A stretch of DNA of 64,000 nt, from positions 310,001 to 374,000 of the forward strand of contig NZ_SNYF01000005.1 of NCBI RefSeq assembly GCF_004362805.1. Direction: 5' to 3'. The translations under genes and the position numbers were made by a program. Of this stretch, positions 1,549-18,587 are shown in pieces. The notes below the pieces were generated by a model. The model was given only the letters and a program-made list of their open reading frames with translations, had not been told where the DNA came from and did not search any database. The stretch is from Algoriphagus boseongensis. GTDB lineage: Bacteria > Bacteroidota > Bacteroidia > Cytophagales > Cyclobacteriaceae. Every line of letters begins with the position of its first letter. Positions within the stretch are counted from its first letter, which is position 1.

Positions 1549-1582
1549 GCCCGAGAGCGGACGAATTGGACACTCCACGAAC
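1549..1582 (+). promoter_or_regulatory. Tandem-dyad upstream activating site A
   Basis: Two 14-bp dyads lie 6 bp apart: GCCCG-AGAG-CGGAC at 1549-1562 and GACAC-TCCA-CGAAC at 1569-1582. The same architecture recurs at 4179, 10253 and 18470. The end of the second dyad is 54 bp before the GG of a sigma-54-like promoter at 1635. Centre-to-centre distance is 20 bp, about two helical turns, as expected for two dimers of an NtrC-family activator on one DNA face. The function is inferred from the recurrence. Confidence 0.65.
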
Positions 1583-1594
1583 AGTTTTATTCCA

Positions 1595-1634
1595 AAAAAG
1601 GCCTTTCTGATCATCAGAAAGGCCTTTTTCTTTT
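1595..1634 (+). terminator. Intrinsic terminator of the first permease
   Basis: A perfect 16-bp stem (1595-1610 with 1614-1629, loop TCA) is followed by a T-rich run. It closes the upstream permease unit and lies inside the spacer between activating site A and its promoter. Confidence 0.85.
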
Positions 1635-1649
1635 TGGAATATTTCATGA
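1635..1649 (+). promoter_or_regulatory. Sigma-54-like -24/-12 promoter A
   Basis: TGGAATATTTCATGA has GG and GA separated by exactly 10 bp, the sigma-54 GG-N10-GC spacing but with GA at -12. It matches the promoter-like sites at 4265, 10338 and 18556. Predicted start of transcription is near 1661, giving a leader of about 86 nt for the permease at 1747. This is the weakest of the four -24 boxes because C is replaced by A after GG. Confidence 0.5.
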
Positions 1650-1746
1650 ACTCTCTTTGCAACCTTTAACTCAAAAGCTGCATCTGATTAATTGAAAGCT
1701 AAACCAACACTTTTTCTGAAAACTAAACCAACTAGTATAACCAGCC

Positions 1747-4170
1747 ATGTGGAAAAATTACCTAACCGTTGCCCTGCGTAATTTAAAACGCAACAAAATC
1801 TATTCAGCCATCAATATCATAGGTCTTGGACTTGGAATGGCTGCCAGTATTCTGATCGCTCTTTTTGTCCTAGATGAACTCAGTTACGACCAATTCATCC
1901 CAAATGGAAAACGAATCTACCGAGCTAATGTCAGTGGAAAAATGAACGGGAATGAGTTTACCACTTCTACTTCAGCCACGCCAATGGCTCCTACGATGCT
2001 CAATGAACTTCCCCAAGTGGAAGATGCTGTCCGTTTTGGATTGATGCGTACTTTCCTTTTTAGACTGGAGGAAAAGGCCTTTACCGAACCCATTGTATTG
2101 GCGGCTGATCCAAATTTCATTGACTTTTTTGGTCTGCAAATGCTCAAGGGAGATCCCAAAACAGCCTTGGTAGGTCCGGATCGGGTTGTTTTGACTCAGT
2201 CTGTGGCTGAAAAGTACTTTGGTACCGAAGACCCGGTTGGGCAATCCATTTTCAGTGGTTCGGAAAATAAACCCCTAGAGGTAACAGGAGTTGTTGCCGA
2301 TTTTCCTTCCAATTCCCATCTGGATTTTGATGCGATTATTTCAGGGGAAAACTTCTGGTACTTTGAGCAGGAAAACTGGACTAGTAATAACATCTACACT
2401 TATTACAGACTGGCTGAAGGCACAGATCCTCAACAAATCCAGCAAGCTATCAATGGCTTTGTCGAAAAGTATGTTGCTGAGGAAATTTTGGCCTTTTTGG
2501 GAATTCCGCTAAAAACTTTCCAGGAGCAAGGCAATGATTATGGGATTCAAACCATGCCTCTTCATGATATTTATTTGAATTCAAATACCAATGATGAGAT
2601 CAAAGCTCCTGGGAATGCCCAGTATCTGATTCTATTCACTGGGATTGCAGTATTTATCCTCTTGATAGCCTGTATCAATTTTATGAATTTGGCTACGGCC
2701 CGCTCTGCTAATCGGGCTAAAGAAGTGGGTGTCCGTAAATCTATCGGTGCCGACAAAGGCCGCTTGATTGGGCAATTTTTAGCAGAATCCTTACTGTATT
2801 GTGTTTTTGCAGGAGTTTTAGCATTAGTAATTATCCTGGTTTTGTTAAAACCATTTAATGTCTTAGCTGGAAAAGAATTGGGCTTTGGGTTTTTGATTCA
2901 ACCTCAATTCTTACTGGCTTTTGTCCTTTTTCTCCTGTTGGTTGGCTTGATGGCAGGATCTTATCCAGCGTTTTATCTGACCTCTTTTTCTCCTGTTACG
3001 GTTTTGAAAGGAAAGTTGAGAGGTGGGGTAAAGAGATCAGGACTGAGAAGTAGTTTGGTGGTATTCCAGTTCTTTATCTCTACCATTTTGATCATTTCCA
3101 GTATGGTGGTCTACAAACAGCTTGGCTACATGCAATCCAAAAATCTGGGATTTGACAAAGAAAATGTGCTTTCTCTACTTCATGTCAGGGCATTGGGAAC
3201 TAATCAGGAAACCTTTAAACAGGAATTGCTCAGCCAAACAGGATTTTTGGAAGCCAGTTATGCGAATAATCTCCCTCCGAAATTGGACTGGAACTCTGTC
3301 ATGCGAACCAAAGACAAGCAGCAGGATATCCTTTGCAATATCAATGTGGTCGACGAAGATCATTTGAAGACTTTGGGCTTCAAGTTGGCCTCAGGAAGGT
3401 TTTTTTCTAAAGAAATCACTGCTGATACCGGTTCTATTTTGATCAATAAGGCGGCCTTAGCTCAGATGGGTTGGACAGAATTGGATGGTTCGCAGGAAAT
3501 TGGAGGATTCTGGAGTGAAGACGGTTCCGTGACTTACCGCAAGGTTATCGGGGTTTTGGAGGATTTTAATTACGAGACCCTACGGCAAAATGTCCGTCCA
3601 TTGGTGATGATGCTGGGTACTCGAAATGATTTCAATGAAATGGCTATCCGCTTGAGTCCGGGAAACTATGCCGAGCAAATCGAGGTCTTGGAACAAATTT
3701 GGAAAAAACATTCAGGAGGAGCTCCATTTGAATATTCCTTTTTGGATGCTGACTTCAATCTCCTTTTTCAGAAGGAACAAAAGATGGGTAATATCATCCT
3801 CATCTTCACTGTTTTGGCGATTGGAATTGCTTGTTTGGGGCTGTTTGGATTAGCAGCTTATACCACAGAGCAACGATCCAAAGAAATAAGCATCCGAAAA
3901 GCTCTAGGAGCTTCCATGCTCAATTTGGTGACTATTTTGAGCAAAGACTTTACCCTTTTGGTGCTGATTGCATTTGTCTTGGGTGGGCCTCTAAGCTATT
4001 ATTTACTTGAAAAATATTGGCTTCAAAACTTTGCCTACCGAACAGAGATCGGGTTGGGGATGATTTTGATTGCTGGACTGATTTCAATTTTCATTGCCTG
4101 GCTGACCGTGAGTTATCAGAGCTTTAAAACAGCGGCTTCCAATCCTGTCGATTACCTAAAAAATGAATAA
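1747..4170 (+). CDS. MacB/FtsX-type ABC permease
   Basis: This 807-residue inner-membrane permease has the two-core layout. Helix 1 is near residues 21-43, followed by a large MacB-like periplasmic domain to about 290. FtsX core one has helices near 293-312, 349-368 and 385-405. A further helix lies near 435-455, then a second periplasmic domain and a second FtsX core to the end. Cytosolic loops carry EVGVRKSIGA and EISIRKALGA, the likely contact with the ATPase. The start MWKNYL matches the other permeases. No ATPase adjoins it, so it probably shares the one at 21134 (inference). It sits alone behind activating site A and its sigma-54-like promoter, with no gene before the next such element. 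Confidence 0.93.
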   Translation: MWKNYLTVALRNLKRNKIYSAINIIGLGLGMAASILIALFVLDELSYDQFIPNGKRIYRANVSGKMNGNEFTTSTSATPMAPTMLNELPQVEDAVRFGLMRTFLFRLEEKAFTEPIVLAADPNFIDFFGLQMLKGDPKTALVGPDRVVLTQSVAEKYFGTEDPVGQSIFSGSENKPLEVTGVVADFPSNSHLDFDAIISGENFWYFEQENWTSNNIYTYYRLAEGTDPQQIQQAINGFVEKYVAEEILAFLGIPLKTFQEQGNDYGIQTMPLHDIYLNSNTNDEIKAPGNAQYLILFTGIAVFILLIACINFMNLATARSANRAKEVGVRKSIGADKGRLIGQFLAESLLYCVFAGVLALVIILVLLKPFNVLAGKELGFGFLIQPQFLLAFVLFLLLVGLMAGSYPAFYLTSFSPVTVLKGKLRGGVKRSGLRSSLVVFQFFISTILIISSMVVYKQLGYMQSKNLGFDKENVLSLLHVRALGTNQETFKQELLSQTGFLEASYANNLPPKLDWNSVMRTKDKQQDILCNINVVDEDHLKTLGFKLASGRFFSKEITADTGSILINKAALAQMGWTELDGSQEIGGFWSEDGSVTYRKVIGVLEDFNYETLRQNVRPLVMMLGTRNDFNEMAIRLSPGNYAEQIEVLEQIWKKHSGGAPFEYSFLDADFNLLFQKEQKMGNIILIFTVLAIGIACLGLFGLAAYTTEQRSKEISIRKALGASMLNLVTILSKDFTLLVLIAFVLGGPLSYYLLEKYWLQNFAYRTEIGLGMILIAGLISIFIAWLTVSYQSFKTAASNPVDYLKNE

Positions 4171-4178
4171 AAATAATC

Positions 4179-4212
4179 GTCCGCTCTCGGTCAAAAATGG
4201 GCTTGAACGGAC
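4179..4212 (+). promoter_or_regulatory. Tandem-dyad upstream activating site B
   Basis: The first dyad is GTCCG-CTCT-CGGTC at 4179-4192. Six bases (AAAAAT) separate it from GGGCT-TGAA-CGGAC at 4199-4212. A 14-base stretch of the first dyad (4177-4190) is the exact reverse complement of 1551-1564 in site A. The second dyad ends 54 bp before the GG of the promoter at 4265. Confidence 0.68.
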
Positions 4213-4264
4213 ATCAAGAAACATTAAAAAATTGAATTGGGGACTGTAACAGCAGTTTTTCCCT

Positions 4265-4279
4265 TGGCATAATTACTGA
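4265..4279 (+). promoter_or_regulatory. Sigma-54-like -24/-12 promoter B
   Basis: TGGCATAATTACTGA carries a good -24 box (TGGCAT) and, 10 bp after GG, GA instead of the usual GC. The predicted start of transcription near 4291 lies after an upstream in-frame ATG at 4286, so it favours the ATG at 4322 for the downstream gene. TGGCATAAT is also present at 10338 and 18556. Confidence 0.6.
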
Positions 4280-4321
4280 AAATAAATGTTTAACCTAAAC
4301 CAACTGATTAATCAAAAAGCT

Positions 4322-5014: not shown

Positions 5015-5039
5015 TAACCTAAACCTAGCCCTATGAATG

Positions 5040-5076
5040 AAAAGTGCCGGTGGAGTAAAATTTATCGGCATTTTTT
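5040..5076 (+). terminator. Intrinsic terminator after the DUF2807 gene
   Basis: A stem formed by 5040-5049 and 5066-5075 (core TGCCG/CGGCA, one G-T pair) runs into a T6 tract. It lies only 36 bp before the next permease start, and no promoter could be recognised between them. Confidence 0.7.
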
Positions 5077-5111
5077 AATCTCTATTTCAAACCCAACCCC
5101 ATCCCTTGATA

Positions 5112-7538
5112 ATGTTTAAAAACTATTTCAAAATCGTCTTCAGGAATGCCAAAAAGCATCCGATGTATGTTTTTATTAACCTCTTCGGGTTGGCAATTGG
5201 TATGACTGTCAGCATCCTAATTTTGCTTTATGTTCAATTCGAATTGAGTTATGACGACTACCATCCGGATAAGGAAAGGATTTTTAGGGTTTCTCGTGCT
5301 TGGTTTAATCCTGACGGGGATATAAGTCTTCACCTCGGTCATACAGCACCTCCTTTTGGGCCATTGATCAAGTCTGACTTTCCTGAGGATGTAGAAGTTT
5401 CTGCACGGATTTTCAATTTTGATCCACTGATAAAATCCGGAGAAAATGCCTTCGAAGAAACCCGCTTTTTCTTTGCTGACCCTGAGTCCTTTGATGTTTT
5501 TTCCTGGGAAATAGTAGAAGGAGAAGGCAAATCAGCTCTCTCCGAAGCCGATGGATTGGTAATCACAGAAAGTACCGCAAAGCGATATTTTGGAGATTCC
5601 CCTGCTGTAGGAAAGGATCTGCTGATTCTTTTGAATGGACAGGAGGTAACCTTTCAAGTTCGAGGCGTTATGAAAGACATGCCTGAGAATTCCCATTTCC
5701 ATGTGGACTTTTTGGCGTCCATGGTCCCGGTGGTTCAATTTTATGGGGGACTGGAGGCTTTCATGGGAAATTTCGGGTCAAATAATTTTTCAACCTTCAT
5801 CAAGCTAAATGAAGGACTTGATTACAAAGATTTTGAAGCTAAACTACCAAGCCTGATCGATCGGCATATGGGTGAGACTCAATCTGGAATTCCTATGTCT
5901 AAAGGAACCCAGTTATTTCTTTGGCCGATCACAGACATTCATTTGTATTCCAACCTGGATTCTGAAATCGAACCCAATGGAAATATTGACTACGTCTATA
6001 TTTACCTGGCTGTGGCATTTTTTATTCTTCTGATTGCTTGTATCAATTTCATGAATCTTTCAACCGCGAGATCTTCTTTGAGATCCATGGAAGTAGGACT
6101 GAGGAAAGTAATGGGAGCGGATAAGGGACTTCTCATCAGGCAGTTTTTAGGGGAATCCTTTGTGATGACTATTTTTTCCATGGTGCTTGCTTTGGTATTG
6201 GTTTACTTGTTTCTGCCCACTTTTGGTGATTTTACTGAGCGACCTTTATCTCTGAATTTGATCCAAAGTCCAGAATATCTGCTGTTGATTTTTGGGATCA
6301 TTGCCTTTGTAGGATTGATTTCAGGAAGTTATCCAGCCTTATTCTTGTCCGGGTTTATGCCTGCCAAAGTTTTAAAAGGAGCCTTTAAAGCTGGAAAAGC
6401 CCATGAGAGATTTCGGTCTGTTTTGGTGGTTGGGCAGTTTGCTATTTCTGTGATGTTGATAGTCGCCGTTTTGGTGGTTGTCAATCAACTGAGTTTTATG
6501 CAGAGCAAAGATCTCGGTTTCAAAAAGGAGGATATTGTAGTCCTTCCAAGCAGCGGGGCTATCACGGAGAATTATCTGATTTTTAAGGACAGGCTGGAAA
6601 ATCATCCGGGAGTTAACTCAGTGACTATCTCAAGCAGAGTCCCTTCAGGCCGGCTCTTAGATTCACAAGGAGCAACTGCCGAGGTCAATGGGGAAATGAA
6701 CCAGCTCAATATCCGAATCGCAGATATTCACGTGGGTCATAATTTTCTGGAAACCTATGGAATTGATTTGGTGGCTGGTAGAAACTTTAATTTTCAGCTT
6801 GCAAGTGATTCTACGGAGGCTTTTATCCTGAATGAAACCTCAGTGAGAGAAATCGGCTGGTCAAGTCCTGAAGAGGCAATTGGAAAACAGTTCCTTTATG
6901 GAGGAAGAAGGGGTTTTGTCACTGGAGTGATGAAAGATTTTCACTTTGAAAGCCTCCATCAGCCTATTGTTCCTATTGTTTTTATGATTTCTCAGGACCG
7001 GAATAATCAGCTTAGCATCAAGATAGATTCTGAGGAGAGGGATCAAGTTTTAGCCTATTTGAAGGAAGAATGGGCTCAAATGAGACCTGACTTTCCATTC
7101 GAACCCTTATTTGTAGATGAAGGTTTTAATCGACAATACGAGGCTGAAAATCGGGTAAAAACAATCTTTACTTTCTTCTCTGTTTTGGCCATTTTGATTT
7201 CTGTGCTCGGCCTTTTAGGATTGGTTACTTTTGCTACCGAACAAAGAACGCGGGAGATCGGAATACGGAAAGTAATGGGAGCTGAGACGAGCAATATTCT
7301 GCTTCTTTTGGGAAGGGATTTTCTCAAATTGGTGGTTCTTGGATTCTTGCTTGCTATTCCAATTTCCTGGTTTGGAATGAATAAATGGCTGGATGACTTT
7401 GCTTACCATATCGGTGTTCATTGGACAGTCTTCCTTTGGGCTGGGCTTTTGGCCGGTGCAATCGCAGCGATTACCATCACATCCCAGACTATCAAAGCAG
7501 CCTGGGCTAATCCTATAAAAAGTATCAAGAGCGAATAA
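5112..7538 (+). CDS. MacB/FtsX-type ABC permease
   Basis: This permease of 808 residues starts at ATG 5112 (MFKNYFKI); a TTG two codons earlier is less likely because every other permease starts at this M-x-K/R-N-Y motif. It has one N-terminal helix (about 20-42), a periplasmic domain, FtsX core one with the loop EVGLRKVMGA near residue 340, a helix near 440, a second periplasmic domain, and FtsX core two with EIGIRKVMGA near 720. The family role is an inner-membrane ABC subunit acting on periplasmic substrates. It follows the DUF2807 gene, but a terminator intervenes, so expression may depend on read-through or on a promoter not recognised here. It has its own strong terminator. Confidence 0.93.
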   Translation: MFKNYFKIVFRNAKKHPMYVFINLFGLAIGMTVSILILLYVQFELSYDDYHPDKERIFRVSRAWFNPDGDISLHLGHTAPPFGPLIKSDFPEDVEVSARIFNFDPLIKSGENAFEETRFFFADPESFDVFSWEIVEGEGKSALSEADGLVITESTAKRYFGDSPAVGKDLLILLNGQEVTFQVRGVMKDMPENSHFHVDFLASMVPVVQFYGGLEAFMGNFGSNNFSTFIKLNEGLDYKDFEAKLPSLIDRHMGETQSGIPMSKGTQLFLWPITDIHLYSNLDSEIEPNGNIDYVYIYLAVAFFILLIACINFMNLSTARSSLRSMEVGLRKVMGADKGLLIRQFLGESFVMTIFSMVLALVLVYLFLPTFGDFTERPLSLNLIQSPEYLLLIFGIIAFVGLISGSYPALFLSGFMPAKVLKGAFKAGKAHERFRSVLVVGQFAISVMLIVAVLVVVNQLSFMQSKDLGFKKEDIVVLPSSGAITENYLIFKDRLENHPGVNSVTISSRVPSGRLLDSQGATAEVNGEMNQLNIRIADIHVGHNFLETYGIDLVAGRNFNFQLASDSTEAFILNETSVREIGWSSPEEAIGKQFLYGGRRGFVTGVMKDFHFESLHQPIVPIVFMISQDRNNQLSIKIDSEERDQVLAYLKEEWAQMRPDFPFEPLFVDEGFNRQYEAENRVKTIFTFFSVLAILISVLGLLGLVTFATEQRTREIGIRKVMGAETSNILLLLGRDFLKLVVLGFLLAIPISWFGMNKWLDDFAYHIGVHWTVFLWAGLLAGAIAAITITSQTIKAAWANPIKSIKSE

Positions 7539-7570
7539 TAAATTTCTAAAACCTTTCGGGTTTAGAATTC

Positions 7571-7613
7571 AAAAAGGCAGAGGTCAGATATCAAGTTCTG
7601 ATTTCTGCTTTTT
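7571..7613 (+). terminator. Intrinsic terminator
   Basis: AAAAAGGCAGAGGTCAG at 7571-7587 pairs with CTGATTTCTGCTTTTT at 7598-7613, with one bulge and a 3' T run. It ends the permease unit that stops at 7538. The remaining bases up to 7774 are AT-rich and show neither a dyad site nor a TGG-N10-GA element. Confidence 0.75.
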
Positions 7614-7774
7614 CATTTTAGGGATAGCCATGAAGCTTTCTGGTAAAATTGAAGTAATTACAAAAAGCTTCAAAGATGCAGTTTAAGATGTTTTTTATTA
7701 GAGATGCAGGGGTTTAAAAACAGTTTATTATTAAGCACTTGTAACCATTTTTCTCCTTTTTTCATCTAATCGGT

Positions 7775-10216
7775 ATGCTAAGAAATTATTTAAAAATCGC
7801 TTGGAGAAATTTACTCCGGAATAGATCCTTCAGCCTTATCAATATTCTTGGGCTGGCAGTCAGCATGTCAGTATGCCTTCTGATCATCATGATAGGAGTC
7901 GATCAATACAGTTTCGATTCTTATCATTCCAAAGGTGATAGAGTCTATCGAATCCATACCACTGAATACCAGCAAAACATCGGGGAAGTTGCCAGTTCGG
8001 CTTTGCCCTTGGCAGAGAAGCTGAAAAATGATTATCCAATTATTGAAGAGGCAGCTGTACTCAATCGAGAAATCGGCGGTGATTTGATCTATGAGGATAA
8101 ATTTGCCACAGGTGGGGGATATTTTGCCGATGGAAATATTTTCAAAATCCTTGATTTTTCATTCAAAGAAGGGAACCCTGAGACTTCCTTAAATGAGCCT
8201 TTTTCCTTGGTCATCACTTCAGAAATGGCCGATATTCTTTTTAATGGGGAATCTGCTTTAGGAAAAACAGTTGCTTTTCATGACAAAGACGTTCAGCCAA
8301 CTGGTCTGGAAGAAGGGAATTTTGAAACGGATTTTGGGTATTTTACTATCACGGGAGTTTTGAATCCTAATCCTGGTAAAACCCATTTGCCTTTCAAGAT
8401 TCTAGCTTCCATGAGCACCAGAAAGTCCCTTCCTATTGAGGCCCTGCGTTCAGAAAAGGAAAATGATTGGGAGAATGTATGGACAAACTACACCTATGTA
8501 CTTCTAAAGAAGGGACAGCGCAAGGAGAATTTGCAATTGATTTTGGATGAAGTTTCTGAAAGTATTTACGCCCAGAAATATGAAAACAAGCATTCCTTCA
8601 AGGCCATGGCCCTAGGAGAAATCACTCCGATGGAAATGATCGGGAATACAACCCATGTTTCTGTTCCTAAAATAGTCTTGATGATTTTAGGGATTCTTTG
8701 CCTTATTGTGATGTTTTCAGCCTGCTTGAATTATACCAATATGTCAGTGGCTAGAGCGCTTACTCGAGTTAAGGAAGTAGGAATCCGAAAAGTTTCAGGA
8801 GCTAATAGAAGACAGGTTTTTGCTCAGTTTATTACTGAGGCTGTCGTTATTTCCTTATGTTCTTTGGTGTTTGCATTCATCTTCCTTCAATTTTTACAAA
8901 AGGGTTTTGAAGGGTTGACATTCAACCAATACTTGCAAATTTCATTTAGACAAAGCCTACCTGCTATGCTTCTTTTCCTTGGATTCAGCTTAGTGGTCGG
9001 CGTGGTTGCCGGATTGCTCCCAGCGACTTACGTGGCCAAATTGAATCCAATAAATCTATTCAATAAACTTTCCGGGGTTAAGCTATTTAAAAGCATGGGA
9101 ATCAGAAATGTCCTGATGGTTCTTCAGTTTACGATTTCCTTGATTTTTATTATTTCGGTTGTTTTGATCCAATCTCAGGCAAAGCATATTCTCAACTTTG
9201 ATTTTGGATTCAATAAAGACAATGTCGTAACCGTAAAACTTTTCAACACTGAAAATTACCAAAGATTTGCTCAGGCCATATCTTCCAATCCTTCAGTATC
9301 TGCCGTGGGGGCAAGTTCCTTGATTCCTGCTGCTGGATGGAATTTTGGTACGGAGGTTGTCAATCCTCAAAACCCCTTGGATAGCATCCAAACCAATTAT
9401 TTTGACATCAATTCAGGTACAGTTTCAGTGCTTGATTTGGAATTGATTGCCGGTAATAATCTTCCTGAAGGAGGAAGTGAAAATCTTGTGCTGATCAATG
9501 AACTAGCAGTCAATAAATTTGATCTGGGATCACCTGCTGATGCTATCGGAAAACAATTGGTGATTATGGATGGGGAAGAATTTAAAAATGTAGAAGTAGC
9601 AGGTATTGTTAAAAACTTTCAGTTTTTGTCTCCAGATCAGGCCATGGAAAGCTTGGTTCTAAGAAGTAGGAACTCCACTATGGGTTTTGCCTTGGTAAGG
9701 GTCAATGGAGATAATCCATCTGCAACTATCGCTTCCTTGGAATCGGCCTGGAAAGAAGTTAATCCAACCACTAAGTTTTCCTATAAATATCTTGATCAAG
9801 AACTCCTATTTATTCACGAGGTATTGGGAGATGTGATATCAGTGATCGGCTTGATTTCGTTTTTGGCGATTTTTGTGTCTTGCCTGGGACTTCTCGGCAT
9901 GGCGACTTACACCGCCCAGACCCGGGTGAAAGAAATTGGAATTCGAAAAACGCTTGGGTCTAGTATTCCAGAGATTATCGCTTTGCTTTCAAAAGGATTT
10001 ATTGGCCTATTGTTCATCGCAGTTCTTATTGCTGTTCCTGCGGCTTATTTTATCAATAATTTTTGGTTGGAATTCTTTGCCTCAAGAGTAAGCATAGGTG
10101 TAGTCCCGATCGGGATAGGAGTGGGATCCCTTATGCTAATTAGCTTCGGGATCATATTTTCTCAAGCTTATAGAGCGGCGATTATCAATCCTATTGAAAG
10201 TTTGAAGAATCAGTGA
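7775..10216 (+). CDS. MacB/FtsX-type ABC permease
   Basis: An 813-residue permease with the same two-core plan. It has an N-terminal helix (about 22-44), a periplasmic domain, a first FtsX core with EVGIRKVSGA near residue 335, a helix near 450-468, a second periplasmic domain and a second FtsX core with EIGIRKTLGS near 730. Its start, MLRNYLKIAWRNLLRN, matches the array. It stands apart from its neighbours: 236 bp of leader after a terminator, no activating dyads upstream, and a terminator after it at 10288. It is therefore probably transcribed singly and from a different type of promoter than its four co-regulated relatives. Confidence 0.92.
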   Translation: MLRNYLKIAWRNLLRNRSFSLINILGLAVSMSVCLLIIMIGVDQYSFDSYHSKGDRVYRIHTTEYQQNIGEVASSALPLAEKLKNDYPIIEEAAVLNREIGGDLIYEDKFATGGGYFADGNIFKILDFSFKEGNPETSLNEPFSLVITSEMADILFNGESALGKTVAFHDKDVQPTGLEEGNFETDFGYFTITGVLNPNPGKTHLPFKILASMSTRKSLPIEALRSEKENDWENVWTNYTYVLLKKGQRKENLQLILDEVSESIYAQKYENKHSFKAMALGEITPMEMIGNTTHVSVPKIVLMILGILCLIVMFSACLNYTNMSVARALTRVKEVGIRKVSGANRRQVFAQFITEAVVISLCSLVFAFIFLQFLQKGFEGLTFNQYLQISFRQSLPAMLLFLGFSLVVGVVAGLLPATYVAKLNPINLFNKLSGVKLFKSMGIRNVLMVLQFTISLIFIISVVLIQSQAKHILNFDFGFNKDNVVTVKLFNTENYQRFAQAISSNPSVSAVGASSLIPAAGWNFGTEVVNPQNPLDSIQTNYFDINSGTVSVLDLELIAGNNLPEGGSENLVLINELAVNKFDLGSPADAIGKQLVIMDGEEFKNVEVAGIVKNFQFLSPDQAMESLVLRSRNSTMGFALVRVNGDNPSATIASLESAWKEVNPTTKFSYKYLDQELLFIHEVLGDVISVIGLISFLAIFVSCLGLLGMATYTAQTRVKEIGIRKTLGSSIPEIIALLSKGFIGLLFIAVLIAVPAAYFINNFWLEFFASRVSIGVVPIGIGVGSLMLISFGIIFSQAYRAAIINPIESLKNQ

Positions 10217-10252
10217 GTTGCAATTTTTCACTGGTGAAGAAATAAAATCTTT

Positions 10253-10286
10253 GACCGCATGCGGACATCTTTGTCCGTAGGAATTT
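10253..10286 (+). promoter_or_regulatory. Tandem-dyad upstream activating site C
   Basis: Dyad GACCG-CATG-CGGAC at 10253-10266 is followed after six bases by GTCCG-TAGG-AATTT at 10273-10286, where only the left half is good. It ends 53 bp before the GG of the promoter at 10338. Read on the opposite strand, site B is GACCG-AGAG-CGGAC, so both arms of B and C are identical. Confidence 0.66.
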
Positions 10287-10287
10287 G

Positions 10288-10333
10288 CCCCAAAATCAAA
10301 AAATAGGTCTCTATTTGCTGATTTTGGGGTTTT
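10288..10333 (+). terminator. Intrinsic terminator inside the site C spacer
   Basis: CCCCAAAATCA at 10288-10298 pairs with TGATTTTGGGG at 10319-10329, with an inner AAATAG/CTATTT stem and a following TTTT. It would end transcription of the permease stopping at 10216. It fills the gap between activating site C and its promoter. Confidence 0.75.
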
Positions 10334-10337
10334 AGTA

Positions 10338-10352
10338 TGGCATAATCCTAGA
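10338..10352 (+). promoter_or_regulatory. Sigma-54-like -24/-12 promoter C
   Basis: TGGCATAATCCTAGA has GG-N10-GA spacing and the same TGGCATAAT core as the sites at 4265 and 18556. The predicted transcription start near 10364 leaves about 20 nt of leader before ATG 10384. Confidence 0.58.
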
Positions 10353-10383
10353 CTAATGATTGGCACACTAAGGATCTTTGTCT

Positions 10384-10974
10384 ATGAAACTTACCACACT
10401 TTTATTCTCTTTACTGCTTATCCCAGGCAGCTATTTCCCAAGGCTTCAGGTGGTGATACCTGTTGGCGAGAGCGTTCAACTCACTTGGGATAATTCAGCC
10501 ACTAGTAAGGTGAAAATTTTTAACACCTCCTCTCAGGGGATTGATGTCAAAGTCGTACATGCCGAGACTAAAGAATTTATCAGAGGATTTGGTCTTAGCA
10601 AAAATTCCACCGAGGAGGTCTTAGTAGAAGAATTTGCCAGCCTTCTGCTGAGCAATCCTTCCAAGGAAGCAATCAAGGTTGGCTACTTGGTTAGTTTGAA
10701 GGCTGAGGAATCCCAAGTTTTTGGGAAAGAGGTGGGACTTACTTTTTATAACAGCTCCAAGTCAAGTATTCCTTTGATCATTCCTGGAGTCATGAATCCA
10801 AACCTCAATCCTATGTCTACTAGCGGAGTGGCTCTCAAAATTGGTCAAGAAGTGTTTTTTAAAGTGAATGGTAAAAAATACCTGCTACTGAAGATAGACA
10901 ATACTTACCAGGACGGACAAGTTTTGGATATTCCTACTTTGATCAAAGTGAGAAAAAAAGAATTTGGAATCTAA
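10384..10974 (+). CDS. Exported protein of unknown function, 196 residues
   Basis: I do not recognise this family. The protein starts at ATG 10384 (a TTG two codons earlier is possible) with a hydrophobic N-terminus (MKLTTLLFSLLLIPGSYF) that looks like a signal peptide. The mature part alternates polar and hydrophobic residues in a beta-rich pattern and has no cysteine cluster or known catalytic motif. It is the first gene behind activating site C, and the next permease starts 18 bp after its stop, so the two are almost certainly cotranscribed. Like the DUF2807 gene, it is a small exported protein leading a regulated unit. A periplasmic accessory or substrate role is possible but unproven. 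Confidence 0.8.
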   Translation: MKLTTLLFSLLLIPGSYFPRLQVVIPVGESVQLTWDNSATSKVKIFNTSSQGIDVKVVHAETKEFIRGFGLSKNSTEEVLVEEFASLLLSNPSKEAIKVGYLVSLKAEESQVFGKEVGLTFYNSSKSSIPLIIPGVMNPNLNPMSTSGVALKIGQEVFFKVNGKKYLLLKIDNTYQDGQVLDIPTLIKVRKKEFGI

Positions 10975-10992
10975 GCCTTAACCTTTAGAAAT

Positions 10993-13437
10993 ATGCTTAA
11001 AAACTATTTCAAGATCGCAATCCGAAATTTATTCAAGCATAAACTCCATACAGGGATCAATCTGATTGGCTTATCCTTGGGTCTGGGAGTCGGCATTTTG
11101 ATTTTTTTCTTTGTCCAATTTGAATTGAGTTTTGATTCTTTTCATGAAGACCAAGACCGGATTTTTAGGGTGAAAACTCATGAAAGGATAGATGGAGAAA
11201 TGCGGGAAACTTATGCTTCTCCTGTAATCCTTGCTGCTGCTTTTCGTGATGAGTTTCCTCAAATCGAGGCAATTTCAGGGGTTACAGGTGCTGATGTACA
11301 GGCGATTTTGCCAGATCAAAGTTCTCAAAATCAAAGGCTACGTTTGGTGGATGCGGATTTTTTGAAGATTCTGAATTTCCCGCTTCTTAAGGGAGATATT
11401 TCCAATCAGCTTCAGGACAAGTTTAGTGTGGTGATCACCGAAGAAGTGGGTGAAAAATATTTCGGAAATGAAAACCCAATCGGAAAATCCATTCAACTAA
11501 AAATGGGTGAAGACTTTGTGGATTATCAGGTAACTGGTGTTTTGCAAAACCCACCCGCTAATTCCTCCATTCCCTTTGAAATCCTCATGCCCATAGCAAA
11601 CATGGACTTCTTTGCGGATGAGGAAAGTTTGGCTTCCTGGTACAACGTCTGGGGCTTTAATCTGGTCAAATTGCAATCCTCAGAGCAGGTAGAGTCGATC
11701 CATCAGAGCATGGAGGCCTTTATGAAAAAGTCTCTTGGAGAGGAATACGAAGAAGGGGGTCTCTATTTTTCGCTTTCTCCCATTTCAGAAATGCATTTTT
11801 CCCAAGGAGCAGGCAATGGTGGAATTGAAACCACGCAGGCTTCTTTGTTATGGATTTTAGCCGGAATTGCATTTTTAGTATTGCTGATTGCCTGCATCAA
11901 TTTCACTACAATGGCGATTGGAAGAGCGACTTCCAGAGCCAAGGAAGTTGGGGTTAGAAAAACCATGGGAGCAAGTTTTGCCCAGCTGATAGGCCAATTT
12001 TTGACAGAGGCATTTTTGACTACTTTAATGGCATCCATTATTGGATTGGTCTTGGCAGAATTGCTTTTGCCTACTTTTAATGACCTCTTTCAGAAGGAAT
12101 TGGATATTGTCTACGGACCGGTGCAATTCTCCATTTTGCTGGGTTTGATATTGATTATTACAGGCCTTGCAGGAGCTTACCCGGCATTTTTCCTTTCTGG
12201 TCTTCGACCTATCAAAGTGCTAAAGGGAAATCTCTCTATACATTTTGGAAAACAAGGACTTCGAAAAGGATTAGTGACTTTTCAGTTTTTCATTTCTTTT
12301 CTCCTGATAGCAGCAACACTCATCATGGTCAACCAGATGAATGCCATCAGAAATTATGATTTGGGATTTGCTCAGGATCAGATCCTGATTGTGGATATGC
12401 CGGATTACCCTTCCAAAAGTTTTCTTACCTCCCTGAAGGAAAGTTATAGAACCGCAGAAACTTTCCGACAGACTTTAGCTGCCAGAGCAGAAGTCGCTTC
12501 AACTGCCATTTCTGTTGCTACTTACGGAGATGATGCTTATTGGCAGGTAGGCTATCCCAAAGAGGATGGAACTCTATTCTCTTTCAAAGTCAATTTTGTT
12601 GCGGGAGATTACTTGAAAACTCTGGGAATGGAGCTAGTTGAGGGTAGAGATCTCAATCCAACCATCGGCGCAGATAGCAGTTCCTTTTTGATCAACGAGG
12701 CATTTGCTCAAGCTTTTGACTGGGATGATCCAACCGGAGAAATGATCCCAGGAACCCGATTTGACCCACATCAAATAGTGGGTGTAGTAAAGGATTTCCA
12801 CCATGCTTCGCTATACCAGCCTATTGAACCGGTTTTAATCGCCAAGAGTCCTGAGGCAGTTTTTAGTGGTATTTCCAATTTGATGATCAATTCCACCACA
12901 AATCCTAAGCTGCTTGTTCAATCTGCCGTTGGGGATTTGAATCAGATAAAAGGTGTGATTGAGGAAGAATGGAATAAGATGTATGCTGGACTACCCCTGA
13001 ATATCACCTTTATGGACGAGACGGTACAAGAGCAATATCAAGCCGATGAGCGGCTGGGGAAAATGGTCTTTATCGCCTCCTGCATTGCCATATTGATTGC
13101 ATCTATGGGTTTACTTGCCATGGTTGCTTTGTCCATCGCTGGACGTACCAAGGAAATTGGAATCAGAAAAGTGTTGGGAGCCTCAGGCTGGAGTATTTCC
13201 TGGATGTTTGGAAAGGAATATTTGGTAATCACAGCCTTGGGTTTACTGGTTGCACTTCCGTTTAGCTTGTATTTGATGCAAGGCTGGGTTTCACAGTTTG
13301 CAATAAAAGCCTGGCCATCATGGCTGAGTTTCGGCTTGCTCAGTTTAGGAGGAATAGCTTTCACTCTTTTGATCGTATATGTTCAATCTCTCAAGGCCAG
13401 CCTGAGTAACCCGGTAAATACCTTGAAGGATGAATAG
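10993..13437 (+). CDS. MacB/FtsX-type ABC permease
   Basis: This 814-residue permease begins MLKNYFKIAIRNLF. It shows an N-terminal helix near 20-42, a periplasmic domain, FtsX core one with the loop EVGVRKTMGA near residue 325, a helix near 430-450, a second periplasmic domain, and FtsX core two with EIGIRKVLGA near 725. It lies 18 bp after the exported 196-residue protein, so it should share the sigma-54-like promoter at 10338. No terminator hairpin was found after it; instead the 160 bp to the next permease hold short degenerate repeats. Family role and lack of an adjacent ATPase are as for the other permeases here. Confidence 0.93.
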   Translation: MLKNYFKIAIRNLFKHKLHTGINLIGLSLGLGVGILIFFFVQFELSFDSFHEDQDRIFRVKTHERIDGEMRETYASPVILAAAFRDEFPQIEAISGVTGADVQAILPDQSSQNQRLRLVDADFLKILNFPLLKGDISNQLQDKFSVVITEEVGEKYFGNENPIGKSIQLKMGEDFVDYQVTGVLQNPPANSSIPFEILMPIANMDFFADEESLASWYNVWGFNLVKLQSSEQVESIHQSMEAFMKKSLGEEYEEGGLYFSLSPISEMHFSQGAGNGGIETTQASLLWILAGIAFLVLLIACINFTTMAIGRATSRAKEVGVRKTMGASFAQLIGQFLTEAFLTTLMASIIGLVLAELLLPTFNDLFQKELDIVYGPVQFSILLGLILIITGLAGAYPAFFLSGLRPIKVLKGNLSIHFGKQGLRKGLVTFQFFISFLLIAATLIMVNQMNAIRNYDLGFAQDQILIVDMPDYPSKSFLTSLKESYRTAETFRQTLAARAEVASTAISVATYGDDAYWQVGYPKEDGTLFSFKVNFVAGDYLKTLGMELVEGRDLNPTIGADSSSFLINEAFAQAFDWDDPTGEMIPGTRFDPHQIVGVVKDFHHASLYQPIEPVLIAKSPEAVFSGISNLMINSTTNPKLLVQSAVGDLNQIKGVIEEEWNKMYAGLPLNITFMDETVQEQYQADERLGKMVFIASCIAILIASMGLLAMVALSIAGRTKEIGIRKVLGASGWSISWMFGKEYLVITALGLLVALPFSLYLMQGWVSQFAIKAWPSWLSFGLLSLGGIAFTLLIVYVQSLKASLSNPVNTLKDE

Positions 13438-13453
13438 GGCTTAAAGAAAATAG

Positions 13454-13477
13454 GATTTACGATTTACGAATTACGAG
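13454..13477. repeat. Short heptamer tandem repeat
   Basis: Three tandem 7-mers (GATTTAC, GATTTAC, GAATTAC) plus GAG lie between two permease genes. They look like one of several degenerate short-word arrays in the gaps of this locus. No function can be assigned. Confidence 0.6.
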
Positions 13478-13558
13478 GGCATGGATACAATTTAGGCCTC
13501 ATATACTTGGATACCTTAATGGCTTAAAACATTACAAACTTTCAACTTTAGAAACCTA

Positions 13559-13586
13559 AATCTTCCAATTTTAAAATCTTTCAATT
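13559..13586 (+). repeat. 28-bp dispersed repeat, copy 1
   Basis: This 28-base AT-rich sequence matches 18684-18711 at 26 of 28 positions. Both copies lie just before a permease start codon, here 14 bp before ATG 13601. It consists of two near-copies of ATCTTYCAATTTT. Confidence 0.75.
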
Positions 13587-13600
13587 TTCAAATTTAGATC

Positions 13601-16012: not shown

Positions 16013-16042
16013 AAAAGTACCGAGAAATCTAATTTAAAAGCT

Positions 16043-16087
16043 GAAGCTAGAAATCTGAGAAATCAGGTTTTTAGCTTCTCCTTTTTT
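16043..16087 (+). terminator. Intrinsic terminator
   Basis: GAAGCTAGAAATCTGA at 16043-16058 pairs with TCAGGTTTTTAGCTTC at 16063-16078, with minor wobble, and is followed by CTCCTTTTTT. It ends the permease unit stopping at 16012. Confidence 0.78.
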
Positions 16088-16089
16088 CT

Positions 16090-16173
16090 CCCCAACCCCC
16101 TAACTTCCCAACCACCCAACTCCCTGCTCCCCAACCTCCCGACTTCCTAACTCCCTAACTTCCCAACCTCCAA
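16090..16173. repeat. Pyrimidine-rich degenerate tandem repeat
   Basis: About 84 bp are built from imperfect 8-11-mers of the type CCCAACTTC and CCTAACTCC. One strand has almost no G, so the tract is strongly strand-asymmetric. It lies between a terminator and the promoter of the DUF1080 gene. No coding potential or known motif was seen. Confidence 0.7.
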
Positions 16174-16186
16174 TTGACAAACGGCA

Positions 16187-16216
16187 TTTGAAAAACCATT
16201 AACTCTTTTAGATTTG
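16187..16216 (+). promoter_or_regulatory. Bacteroidota-type promoter of the DUF1080-oxidoreductase pair
   Basis: TTTG at 16187-16190, an 18-bp spacer and TAGATTTG at 16209-16216 match the primary-sigma consensus TTTG / TAnnTTTG of Bacteroidota. The predicted start of transcription is near 16222, 20 nt before ATG 16242. This unit thus uses a housekeeping promoter, unlike the sigma-54-like units around it. Confidence 0.75.
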
Positions 16217-16241
16217 TACTAGACCATTTCCACCACCTACT

Positions 16242-16904
16242 ATGACAAATCGATTTCGCTTTCTAAGGATTTTCACTTTAGCTTTTTCCCTTTCTGTTTT
16301 ATCAAGTTCTCAGATTTTTGCTCAGGAAGCCGGTTTCACTTCACTTTTCAATGGAAAAAATTTGGATGGATGGGTAGGGAATAAGGATTCCTATCAGGTT
16401 AAGGATGGTATGATCGTCATTGAACCTAAAGGTGGAGGAGGAGGGAACCTCTATACCGAAAAAGAATACGGAAATTTTATCCTTCGATTTGAGTTCAAAT
16501 TGACCCCTGGAGCTAACAATGGCTTGGGTATTCATGCCCCCCTTGAAGGTGATGCTGCGTATGTGGGTAAAGAAATTCAGATTCTGGAAAATACTGCTGA
16601 TAAATATAAAGGCTTAAAAGAGTACCAATTTCACGGTTCTGTCTATGGAGTAATTGCTGCCAAGAAGGGATTTTTGAAACCTGTAGGGGAATGGAATGTG
16701 GAGGAAGTAATTGTCGAGCATCCCAAAATCAAGGTCGTTTTAAATGGAGAAACCATTCTGGAAGGAGACTATTTAGAAGAAAGTAAAGAGGGTACTTTGG
16801 ATAAAAGAGATCATCCTGGTCTTCAGCGATCCACTGGCCATATCGGATTTTTAGGGCATGGAGATGTGGTCTTTTTCAGAAATATTCGAATCAAAGAATT
16901 GTAA
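16242..16904 (+). CDS. Exported DUF1080 protein (3-keto-disaccharide hydrolase-like)
   Basis: This 220-residue protein has a signal peptide (about residues 1-28, ending near FAQ) and a single DUF1080 jelly-roll domain. Recognisable features are the early SLFNGKNLDGW motif, the NFILRFEFKLTPGANNGLGIH segment in the middle, and the ending GHIGFLGHGDVVFFRNIRIKEL. Members of this family have been shown in gut Bacteroides to cleave 3-keto-glycosides, while others remain uncharacterised. The next gene, 25 bp downstream, is a Gfo/Idh/MocA oxidoreductase, the enzyme class that makes or reduces the 3-keto sugar. The pair is therefore likely one pathway in the periplasm. It interrupts the permease array. 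Confidence 0.88.
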   Translation: MTNRFRFLRIFTLAFSLSVLSSSQIFAQEAGFTSLFNGKNLDGWVGNKDSYQVKDGMIVIEPKGGGGGNLYTEKEYGNFILRFEFKLTPGANNGLGIHAPLEGDAAYVGKEIQILENTADKYKGLKEYQFHGSVYGVIAAKKGFLKPVGEWNVEEVIVEHPKIKVVLNGETILEGDYLEESKEGTLDKRDHPGLQRSTGHIGFLGHGDVVFFRNIRIKEL

Positions 16905-16929
16905 TCACTAGTCAAAACATTACCCAAAA

Positions 16930-18279
16930 ATGAATAAGAAATTTCAAGTTATTGATCGCCGGGACTTCTTAAAAAGAACCGGATTGGGGATTTTGGGACT
17001 TTCCCTCGCTCCCTCTCTTTTAGCCAAAGCTCAGGCTAATGGAAAATTACGAACAGCCCATATTGGATTGGGCGGCATGGGAATGGCTGATTTGGATGCT
17101 ATTTCATCTCATGAGCTAGTCAAGGTCGTGGGACTTTGTGATGTAGATAGCAAAGCACTGGCAGGGGCCAAGACCCTTCATCCCAATGCCAAAACCTATG
17201 CAGACTATCGCACCATGCTTAAAGAGCTGGAAGATCAAATAGATGCGGTCATTGTCTCCACCCCTGACCATACTCATGCTCCAGCATCCTTGATGGCGAT
17301 GAAAATGGATAAGCCTGTGTATTGTCAAAAACCCCTGACTCACCATGTGACCGAGGCCAGAGCGATGAAAAAACTGGCAGCCAAGAAAAACCTGGTGACC
17401 CAAATGGGGATTCAGGTTCATTCTTTTTATGACTATAAGCTGGCAACTCTTCTGATCCAATCCGGGATAATTGGAAAGGTAAATACGGTTAGGGCCTGGT
17501 CTCCTAAAAACTGGGGCTTTGATGGGCCTGAGCCAAGTGGAAGTGATCCCGTGCCAGCTAATTTGGATTGGAATCTATGGCTTGGAACAGCTCCGGAAAG
17601 ACCTTTCAAAGAAGGTTACTATCATCCCGGCAATTGGAGGAAAATCATGGATTTTGGTTGCGGAACTTTGGGAGATATGGGTGTTCACATTTTTGATACT
17701 CCATACAACGCGCTCCAATTAGATGTGCCCAGAACTATCATCAATGAATGTAGACAGCCGACGGGTTTTGGTTTCCCAGAGCATAACACCGTTACCTATG
17801 AATTTCCTGGCACTCCATACACCACGGATTCTCTAAAATGGGTATGGTATGACGGCATGGGAGCCCCAGATGAGCATCCTGATTTGGTTTTACCGAATGG
17901 AGATAAGCTTCCAGATCAGGGAGCCATGTTTATGGGAGAAAAGGGAAGATTGCTCCTTCCGCATTTCCAGCAATTGCCTCGCTTGATCGTGGATGGGAAA
18001 TATCAGGAAATGGATATTGAAAAATTTAATCTTGGTAAGCCTGTAAAAGACTATGATTCAGAAAGTAAAAAGCACTACCATCAATTTGTAGATGCTTGTT
18101 TGGGAAAAGGGGAATGCAGTGCGCCTTTCGAATATTCAGCCAGGCTTACCGAGACAATTCTTTTGGGCGTAATCGCCGGAAGATTCCCGAATCAAATGCT
18201 TCACTGGGATAGCAAAAAGGCGAAATTCCAAGAAAAGGAAGCGAATCAGTATTTGGGTGGGAAGTATCGGAAGTTTTAA
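16930..18279 (+). CDS. Tat-exported Gfo/Idh/MocA-family oxidoreductase
   Basis: A 449-residue NAD(P)-dependent sugar oxidoreductase. The N-terminus carries a twin-arginine signal (DRRDFLKRTGLGILGLSL, residues 9-26), so it is exported folded with cofactor. The Rossmann part shows GLGGMGMADLDA near residue 47, DVDSKALAGA, and QKPLTH near 134 (the usual EKP motif with Q). The substrate domain has DMGVHIFD near 254. Such Tat-type enzymes in Bacteroidota often act on glycosides and pair with DUF1080 hydrolases, as here. The gene follows DUF1080 by 25 bp and ends the operon. The substrate is not identifiable from sequence. Confidence 0.92.
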   Translation: MNKKFQVIDRRDFLKRTGLGILGLSLAPSLLAKAQANGKLRTAHIGLGGMGMADLDAISSHELVKVVGLCDVDSKALAGAKTLHPNAKTYADYRTMLKELEDQIDAVIVSTPDHTHAPASLMAMKMDKPVYCQKPLTHHVTEARAMKKLAAKKNLVTQMGIQVHSFYDYKLATLLIQSGIIGKVNTVRAWSPKNWGFDGPEPSGSDPVPANLDWNLWLGTAPERPFKEGYYHPGNWRKIMDFGCGTLGDMGVHIFDTPYNALQLDVPRTIINECRQPTGFGFPEHNTVTYEFPGTPYTTDSLKWVWYDGMGAPDEHPDLVLPNGDKLPDQGAMFMGEKGRLLLPHFQQLPRLIVDGKYQEMDIEKFNLGKPVKDYDSESKKHYHQFVDACLGKGECSAPFEYSARLTETILLGVIAGRFPNQMLHWDSKKAKFQEKEANQYLGGKYRKF

Positions 18280-18469
18280 GCTAGTATCAAGTATTTAGTA
18301 GCAAGAGTTTAGAAAGTCTGATCAACTTTCTATTGATCGATGCGGCTGAGTTCTGAAATCTGCGACTGCCGTCTATTAAGTGCTTCTATTTCGAGACTAT
18401 TGTCTCTCAGGTGCTCAGTCTTAAAGACCTACCAAATGACCAATGAGACTGCTCACTGCCTACTGATTT
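18280..18469. other. Non-coding gap with low-complexity words
   Basis: No gene is supported in the 435 bases between 18279 and 18715. This first part has slip-like repeated words such as AGTATCAAGTATTTAGTAGC near 18285 and CTGCTCACTGCCTACTG near 18449. The rest holds activating site D, a terminator, a sigma-54-like promoter, a long hairpin and a 28-bp repeat, each listed separately. Confidence 0.6.
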
Positions 18470-18503
18470 GTTCGCTGGCGAACAAAAATGTTCGAGAGCT
18501 TGT
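18470..18503 (+). promoter_or_regulatory. Tandem-dyad upstream activating site D
   Basis: A perfect dyad GTTCG-CTGG-CGAAC at 18470-18483 is followed after AAAAAT (the same six bases as in site B) by GTTCG-AGAG-CTTGT at 18490-18503. The second dyad ends 54 bp before the GG of the promoter at 18556, the same distance as in sites A and B. Confidence 0.68.
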
Positions 18504-18524
18504 CAGCATACTAATTAAAAAATG

Positions 18525-18554
18525 GCCTTTGGAGCTTTTCCAGAGGCTTTTTTT
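18525..18554 (+). terminator. Intrinsic terminator inside the site D spacer
   Basis: GCCTTTGGA at 18525-18533 pairs with TCCAGAGGC at 18539-18547 (one G-T pair), followed by seven T. It lies 245 bp after the oxidoreductase stop, so the transcript of that operon probably runs through the low-complexity gap before ending here. Confidence 0.75.
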
Positions 18555-18555
18555 A

Positions 18556-18570
18556 TGGCATAATAGTGGA
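18556..18570 (+). promoter_or_regulatory. Sigma-54-like -24/-12 promoter D
   Basis: TGGCATAATAGTGGA has GG-N10-GA spacing and the shared TGGCATAAT core. The predicted transcription start near 18582 gives a leader of about 133 nt that begins almost directly with the hairpin at 18588. It should drive the permease, ATPase and TolC genes. Confidence 0.58.
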
Positions 18571-18587
18571 AAAGGGTAGAGGAGAAA

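What the first reader, a model, noticed from the sequence alone, without database searches (positions are those of the whole stretch)
1549..18570. Four copies of a composite element: tandem 14-bp dyads plus a sigma-54-like promoter at fixed distance
At 1549, 4179, 10253 and 18470 two dyads of type GNYCG-N4-CGRNC lie exactly 6 bp apart. The distance from the end of the second dyad to the GG of a TGG-N10-GA element is 54, 54, 53 and 54 bp. Three of the four promoters share TGGCATAAT. Each element stands before a separate unit of the permease locus (starts 1747, 4322, 10384, 18715). The 20-bp dyad spacing fits two dimers of an NtrC-family activator on one DNA face. Such regularity in four unrelated intergenic sequences is hard to explain by chance and points to a dedicated regulon; the regulator is not in the window.
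Basis: partly seen in the sequence, partly recalled or inferred. Interest (0 to 1): 0.88.

Follow-up and report, generated by a model that had tools for sequence, protein, structure and literature searches.

The report
One enhancer regulon for orphan permeases
In an environmental Bacteroidota bacterium, six similar gene switches tie an array of membrane-pump genes to one neighbouring sensor-regulator pair, and the same switch stands before scattered pump genes in related genera; the mechanism is of a known type, and its function is untested.

Summary
The composite element is real. The other two lie 1-7 kb upstream of the window, where an NtrC-type response regulator (RR1) and kinase stand divergent from a HlyD adaptor gene. 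A model built only from relatives recovers all six (E 8e-18 to 5e-8; next 4e-4). The element lies upstream of RR1 in 77 of 80 related loci. In five other genera, 40 of 40 sampled copies precede FtsX/MacB permeases (32), an ATPase plus outer-membrane efflux gene (5) or Toastrack-type genes (3). It tracks RR1: 26 of 26 congeneric genomes with RR1 have three or more copies, 0 of 14 without, though 13 of those 14 keep paralogue RR2. One correction: the second 'dyad' is a half-site (both strict halves in 0 of 109 elements). The enhancer-promoter gap is nearly rigid (51-56 bp in 89 of 94 cases) and sometimes holds a terminator. Best reading: a sigma-54 regulon driven by RR1, controlling a MacAB-like tripartite pump with several alternative permeases. 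All of this is inferred from sequence.

The parts
1549..1582 (+). Enhancer (UAS) E3: palindrome 1549-1562 + right half-site in 1569-1582, 4 bp after the stop codon of the upstream permease gene
   Evidence: R2 model E 4.7e-8; at background in leave-one-out PWM
1583..1634 (+). Spacer E3 with a strong terminator-like hairpin (-21.3 kcal/mol)
1635..1650 (+). sigma-54-like -24/-12 promoter E3, TGGAATATTTCATGAA; predicted start about 1660
   Evidence: the TGGAA variant recurs before P3-like genes in L070 (A. hitonicola) and L106 (A. faecimaris)
1747..4170 (+). Permease P3 (MacB_PCD + FtsX), 807 aa
   Evidence: Pfam
4179..4212 (+). Enhancer E4: palindrome 4179-4192 + right half-site in 4199-4212
4265..4280 (+). 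sigma-54-like promoter E4, TGGCATAATTACTGAA
4322..5014 (+). DUF2807 (Toastrack/head-GIN) protein, first gene of unit E4
   Evidence: Pfam 168 bits
5106..7538 (+). Permease P4
7775..10216 (+). Permease P5
10253..10286 (+). Enhancer E5: palindrome 10253-10266 + left half-site in 10273-10286
10287..10337 (+). Spacer E5 with a strong terminator-like hairpin (-20.9 kcal/mol)
10338..10353 (+). sigma-54-like promoter E5, TGGCATAATCCTAGAC
10384..10974 (+). ORF of 196 aa, no Pfam family above cut-off, first gene of unit E5
10993..13437 (+). Permease P6
13601..16012 (+). Permease P7
18470..18503 (+). Enhancer E6: palindrome 18470-18483 + left half-site in 18490-18503
18504..18555 (+). Spacer E6 with a terminator-like hairpin (-14.9 kcal/mol)
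18556..18571 (+). sigma-54-like promoter E6, TGGCATAATAGTGGAA
18715..21117 (+). Permease P8
21134..21808 (+). ABC ATPase (ATP2) of unit E6
21786..23135 (+). Outer-membrane efflux protein (OEP, TolC-like) of unit E6
   Evidence: PF02321 157 bits
1..1544 (+). End of permease P2. Upstream of the window: element E2 994 bp away; regulator, kinase, HlyD, ATPase, P1 and element E1 1-10 kb away (locus L011 = G000:C1:293001-312000: HK 7295-8647 -, RR1 8637-10028 -, E1 10208, HlyD 10331-11596, ATPase 12257-13006, P1 13630-15990, E2 16006, P2 16139-18544)

Best explanation
Each element is an enhancer plus a sigma-54 promoter. A membrane kinase with hydrophobic N-terminal helices and no room for an external sensor domain phosphorylates the NtrC-family regulator RR1 encoded beside it. 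RR1 binds a palindrome (GNYCG-N4-CGRNC) plus one half-site in the next 14-mer, about 78-111 bp upstream of the expected start, and remodels RpoN polymerase at the TGG(-24)/G(-12) promoter. This switches on, together, an adaptor (HlyD), two ATPases, an outer-membrane channel and eight FtsX/MacB permeases: a MacAB-TolC-like pump with alternative permeases. In related genera the permease units are scattered but keep the same switch. Shown by sequence: the elements, the genes behind them, their conservation, the co-occurrence with RR1. Inferred: binding, RpoN dependence, the signal, the transcription units, and shared use of ATPase, adaptor and channel.
For: Six full-length hits, all at this locus, with R1 and with the relatives-only model R2. 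A strict dyad with a TGG box at the fixed distance upstream of RR1, reading away from it, in 77 of 80 loci. 114 of 116 composite hits in those loci on the transporter strand. 40 of 40 sampled elements from five other genera before permease, ATPase+OEP or Toastrack genes (three of the 40 are identical copies). Co-occurrence with RR1: genus 26 of 26 against 0 of 14 with three or more elements; family 31 of 34 against 4 of 26 with two or more; a further complete congener without RR1, G154, has one element. Invariant TGG and -12 G, 12 bp from the first G, in alignments of 40 and 43 elements (elements were picked by a matrix). Gap when dyads are picked without a promoter condition: 89 of 94 at 51-56 bp. 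One RpoN; RR1 has REC, Sigma54_activat and HTH_8.
Against: No binding, expression or start-site data. RR1's loop reads GSFTDA, not GAFTGA (GSFTDA 52, GAFTDA 28 of the 80 orthologues). The -12 box is GA or GG, not GC, at the six own promoters. Paralogue RR2 has a nearly identical recognition helix. The RR1-less congeners are 67-93% complete and 12 of 14 are 2.2-2.8 Mb; they may be one clade, so the association may rest on few events. 3 of 34 RR1 genomes of the family show no element; 9 of 26 without RR1 show one or two, and 4 of 14 such congeners plus G154 do too. Of 29 best-scoring loci across the family, 7 elements stand before genes that did not match this locus's proteins. 12 of 106 dyad pairs had no promoter of 8 bits or more within 10-160 bp.
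Confidence: 0.87

Rival explanations
1. The paralogous pair RR2/HK2 (G000:C3, 62% identical, no transporter next to it), not RR1, is the main activator, or both share the sites.
For: RR2 ends LTRASLYRRLEKYGL against LTRSSLYRRLEKYGL in RR1; one element precedes an RR2-like gene in G022 (L201); single elements remain in some genomes without RR1.
Against: 13 of 14 congeneric genomes without RR1 keep RR2, yet 0 of 14 have three or more elements; complete genome G154 keeps RR2 and has one; G161 (99% complete, 6% contaminated) has RR1 and three elements but no RR2 match at E<=1e-150. The element sits beside RR1 in 77 of 80 loci.
Confidence: 0.08
2. The dyads serve another DNA-binding protein and the TGGCATAAT boxes are part of terminators or ordinary promoters; no sigma-54 involved.
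For: Strong terminator-like hairpins lie in the gap at 1583-1634, 10287-10337 and 18504-18555; the -12 box is non-canonical.
Against: TGG and the -12 G are invariant in alignments of 40 and 43 elements, also at the divergent HlyD promoter, where a terminator signal is not far above the shuffled level (8 of 76 against 4 and 4). The nearly fixed gap and the neighbouring NtrC-type regulator fit sigma-54.
Confidence: 0.04
3. Chance, or copying of one duplicated segment that drags a non-functional intergenic sequence along.
For: The permeases look like paralogues; three copies in G043 are identical over the 3,330 bp compared; copy 1549 is at background in the own-genome matrix.
Against: Spacers differ in sequence while box positions hold across genera; shuffles do not reach the scores of five of the six; elements also stand before HlyD, ATPase and Toastrack genes, which are not permeases.
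Confidence: 0.01

Closest known systems
NtrC-family enhancer-binding proteins with sigma-54 promoters (NtrC, ZraR, AtoC, PspF; general knowledge, NCBIfam hits, PMC12316311 passages)
   Same: REC-AAA+-HTH regulator with partner kinase; inverted-repeat site upstream; -24/-12 promoter with invariant GG and G
   Different: Site is one palindrome plus a half-site; gap held to about 51-56 bp across non-orthologous promoters, at some with a terminator inside; GSFTDA loop; RR1 is below the cut-off of all 25 NCBIfam models shown
Predicted sigma-54 control of COG0577 (FtsX-type permeases) in Bacteroidia (PMC12316311, 2025; passages seen)
   Same: Same class of target and sigma factor; that paper speaks of a previously unrecognised regulatory axis
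   Different: In the passages seen it works from promoter matrices and names no activator, enhancer site, adaptor or channel for this group
MacAB-TolC and darobactin DarBCD exporters
   Same: HlyD adaptor, separate ATPase, MacB_PCD/FtsX permease, OEP channel
   Different: Eight permeases in one locus; scores below the Dar and MacA/MacB equivalog cut-offs
ADOP duplicated permeases (TIGR03434)
   Same: Matches over most of the length of P1 and P3
   Different: 308 and 279 bits against a cut-off of 622
Bce/Lia-type modules: intramembrane-sensing kinase with FtsX-fold transporter (recalled)
   Same: Kinase without an external sensor domain beside FtsX-type transporters
   Different: Regulator is NtrC-family; tripartite Gram-negative pump

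Membership tests
NtrC-type sigma-54 activator (RR1) | REC + Sigma54_activat AAA+ + Fis-type HTH | tested here: met
NtrC-type sigma-54 activator (RR1) | GAFTGA loop | tested here: inconclusive
   GSFTDA here; GSFTDA 52 and GAFTDA 28 of 80 orthologues: F and T kept, one or two positions differ
sigma-54 promoter | GG and G 12 bp apart, conserved | tested here: met
   (matrix-selected elements)
sigma-54 promoter | canonical -12 GC | tested here: not met
   GG at E1 and GA at E2-E6, none GC, read from the promoter letters printed
sigma-54 promoter | transcription depends on RpoN and activator | not testable with these tools
   one RpoN gene present
dedicated regulon of RR1 | sites confined to a coherent gene set and co-occurring with the regulator | tested here: met
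   less pure in distant genera
MacAB-TolC-like tripartite pump | adaptor, ATPase, MacB-fold permease and OEP under one control | tested here: met
   by domain and element only:
Darobactin exporter (NF038007/8/10) | score over equivalog cut-off | tested here: not met
   289 vs 375, 89 and 167 vs 700, 198 vs 450 bits
ADOP TIGR03434 | score over cut-off | tested here: not met
   308 and 279 vs 622 bits for P1 and P3; the other permeases were not scanned with NCBIfam
Intramembrane-sensing histidine kinase | two TM helices, loop under about 25 residues, no external domain | tested here: inconclusive
   hydropathy of own HK and 12 relatives leaves no room for an external domain, but the windows overlap and do not resolve two helices; loop judged by eye

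The most novel reading that the evidence does not exclude
The enhancer is a fixed-geometry device: three half-sites at a set distance and helical face from a sigma-54 promoter, at several units with the upstream gene's terminator inside the short loop. Through it one kinase-regulator pair unites scattered 'orphan' FtsX permeases with a shared adaptor, ATPase and channel, so that the regulon defines a combinatorial pump whose membrane subunit is exchangeable.
Probability: 0.35. Interest if true: 0.75.

Novelty: new member of a known kind. Interest (0 to 1): 0.6.

Why it matters
Duplicated FtsX/MacB permeases without an ATPase of their own are common in Bacteroidota, and their partners and signals are mostly unknown (general knowledge, not searched here). 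A shared, recognisable switch groups them with an adaptor, ATPases and an outer-membrane channel and names a testable kinase and regulator. It adds a candidate activator and its sites to the sigma-54 link predicted from promoters in 2025 (PMC12316311, passages). The nearly rigid enhancer-promoter distance, unusual for activators that normally tolerate variable distance (general knowledge), gives a natural series of 3-15 promoters per genome for testing why.

Tried and rejected
Two tandem complete dyads: rejected for these genera, since strict left and right halves of the second site occur together in 0 of 109 distinct elements (the elements were picked with a matrix trained on the six own copies, and the Fulvivirga sites carry a palindromic second site of another type, GTTCA-N4-TGAAC or close to it). 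RR2 as main regulator: unlikely. A regulon beyond this locus in the own genome: no full-length match (the tool scored 150 of 3937 and 150 of 2180 first-look candidates); reverse-strand hits on the dyads, E 0.008 and weaker, show roughly what a dyad pair without promoter would score. Spread through the class: 4 of 99 genomes at E<=1e-5, one of them this genome (stricter filters), so lineage-limited as far as this model sees. A terminator as a fixed part of the element: not general. Structure prediction was not run; domain scans seemed enough. Literature: listings show no paper that by title or abstract start treats this regulator or enhancer; PMC12316311, PMC9723704 and PMC11237479 were seen as passages only.
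Full report
WHAT WAS CHECKED. The first dyad is perfect in all four. The second 14-mer, exactly 6 bp later, misses the stated type by 2, 2, 4 and 3 positions and keeps one half only. The spacing to the TGG box is as stated (53, 53, 52 and 53 bases between; 54, 54, 53, 54 as position difference). In a leave-one-out test on a matrix from six copies, five of six outscore every other place in 81 kb and the maxima of 20 shuffles of the window; the copy at 1549 does not (15.7 bits).

WHERE IT LIES. The window is G000:C1:310001-374000, in a genome of 4.18 Mb in 13 contigs. The closest named regulators are those of Algoriphagus species, up to 97% identical. The sequence upstream of the window (L011) holds a kinase, an NtrC-type regulator RR1 (REC, Sigma54_activat, HTH_8), a divergent HlyD adaptor, an ABC ATPase and permeases P1 and P2, and two more copies of the element: E1 between RR1 and HlyD, E2 before P2. 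The six element-led units are E1 HlyD-ATPase-P1, E2 P2, E3 P3, E4 DUF2807-P4-P5, E5 ORF196-P6-P7, E6 P8-ATPase-OEP (the grouping is inferred from order and strand). Together they encode every part of a tripartite pump.

GENOME SCAN. Model R1 (40 elements, own six included) gives six hits at E 2e-17 to 1.3e-9, all here; the next is 0.008, the reverse strand of E1. Model R2, built from 43 elements of relatives only, finds the same six at E 8e-18 to 4.7e-8; the next, partial hit, without the first dyad, is 4.3e-4. Both scans score only 150 first-look candidates. One search lists 7 MacB_PCD places outside the locus; none has a match or 42 at E below 0.01 close by.

RELATIVES. In 80 named loci with RR1 orthologues (the tool kept the best 80 of 246), a strict dyad with a TGG box at the fixed distance stands upstream of the regulator, reading away from it, in 77 of 80 (52-56 bases between). 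Of the three others, L137 holds only 375 bases there, L129 shows none, and L076 has a variant found by the matrix. The matrix scan gave 116 hits at 24 bits or more, 114 on the transporter strand. When dyad pairs are picked without looking at promoters (106 on the transporter strand), 94 have a promoter of 8 bits or more within 10-160 bases, and in 89 of these it lies 51-56 bases away; 12 have none. On the other strand 0 of 14 lie at 51-56.

A DISPERSED REGULON. In 60 genomes of the family R2 finds up to 15 elements a genome. From five of them (G001, G039, G043, G045, G050; 64 matches in all) I fetched 40 elements other than the one at RR1. All 40 stand before a gene of this system: 32 before an approximately 800-aa permease (start up to 312 bases on), 5 before ATPase plus OEP, 1 before DUF2807 plus permease, 2 before DUF4097-type Toastrack proteins (Pfam was run on one of the two, the other judged by its likeness). 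Three of the 40, in G043, are identical copies. Some lie on RR1's contig, tens of kb away; others on other contigs. Among 29 best-scoring loci of the whole family search, however, 7 elements (L188, L191, L192, L195, L197, L198, L203, all from genomes with RR1 under 80% or none) stand before genes without a match to this locus, and one (L201) before a regulator gene. So the set is less pure far away.

WHICH REGULATOR. The genome has four strong Sigma54_activat proteins. The closest rival, RR2 on C3, is 62% identical with almost the same recognition helix. Genus test: of 40 genomes, 26 have RR1 (91-100%) and all 26 have 3-15 elements; 14 lack RR1, 13 of them keep RR2, and 0 of 14 have three or more (4 of 14 have one or two). 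A further congener, G154 (100% complete), has RR2 but not RR1 and one element; G073, of the same family, has an RR1 at 71% and two. Family test: 31 of 34 with RR1 at 67% or more have at least 2 elements against 4 of 26; at least 3 in 24 of 34 against 0 of 26; at least 1 in 31 of 34 against 9 of 26 (the 67% line is mine, set after seeing the identities). RR1 sits beside HlyD in 25 of the 30 best loci; in two of the three RR1 genomes without elements, G028 and G057, it does not. The tests do not correct for shared descent, and the RR1-less congeners are 67-93% complete.

ANATOMY. Invariant in alignments of 40 and 43 elements: G..C and CG..C of the palindrome, TGG, A, and the -12 G twelve bases after the first G of GG (the elements had been picked by a matrix, which favours these letters). 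The second site keeps the left half in 61 of 69 elements at HlyD or without a label and in 22 of 40 others, the right half in 0 and 11, both in none. So the device is a palindrome plus one half-site, about two helical turns on. Hairpins followed by T runs (-6 kcal/mol or better) lie between enhancer and promoter in 15 of 42 internal spacers (1 and 3 in two shuffled sets) and in 8 of 76 HlyD or unlabelled spacers (4 and 4 shuffled): at those internal units the enhancer stands before, and the promoter after, the upstream gene's terminator. This may insulate the units (inference).

MECHANISM. The first 60 or so residues of the kinase are hydrophobic without room for an external domain, in 13 sequences looked at (crude hydropathy), so the signal probably comes from within the membrane or from the pump, as in Bce/Lia systems (recalled analogy). 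The Toastrack proteins point to envelope stress: PMC11237479 (passages) unifies DUF2807 and DUF4097 as Toastrack and links it to membrane-stress two-component systems. The likely logic is: stress, kinase, RR1~P, loop to RpoN polymerase, pump and several permeases made together. Substrates are unknown.

PRIOR WORK. PMC12316311 (2025, passages) reports predicted sigma-54 control of COG0577 permeases in Bacteroidia. PMC9723704 (passages) shows a -24/-12 motif in Flavobacterium psychrophilum, with one promoter region carrying it tested by mutagenesis. The listings show no paper on this regulator-enhancer pair; subscription journals are mostly not held. I therefore call it a new member of a known kind, with an unusually rigid and half-site-based enhancer.

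Noticed in passing
L011:11713-12066 (+) and L011:13071-13442 (-): Two 23S_rRNA_IVP (S23 four-helix) genes sit between HlyD, ATPase and P1, with simple C/T-rich repeats nearby (L011:13537-13620, seen).
   Followed up: no
L210, L211, L212 (G043 contigs C5, C12, C19): Three contigs of one genome carry an element plus an 819-aa permease identical over the 3,330 bp compared, so a permease-plus-switch cassette was probably copied recently; the ends of the repeat were not reached.
   Followed up: partly
window 16242-18279: A 3-keto-disaccharide hydrolase-type gene and a GFO/IDH/MocA oxidoreductase gene lie in the permease array between P7 and element E6, without an element of their own.
   Followed up: no
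L201 (G022:C4:6711-6809): A similar element stands before a regulator gene 60% identical to RR1, suggesting self-control in that lineage or a site type shared by the RR1/RR2 family.
   Followed up: no
L014:4908-7623: RR2 and its kinase have no transporter beside them in this genome; RR2-like proteins recur across the family; their targets are unknown.
   Followed up: partly
G159, G160, G162-G165, G168-G170, G177, G184, G192: Twelve small (2.2-2.8 Mb), incomplete congeneric genomes lack RR1 and have 0 or 1 element but keep RR2; they may be a streamlined lineage.
   Followed up: no
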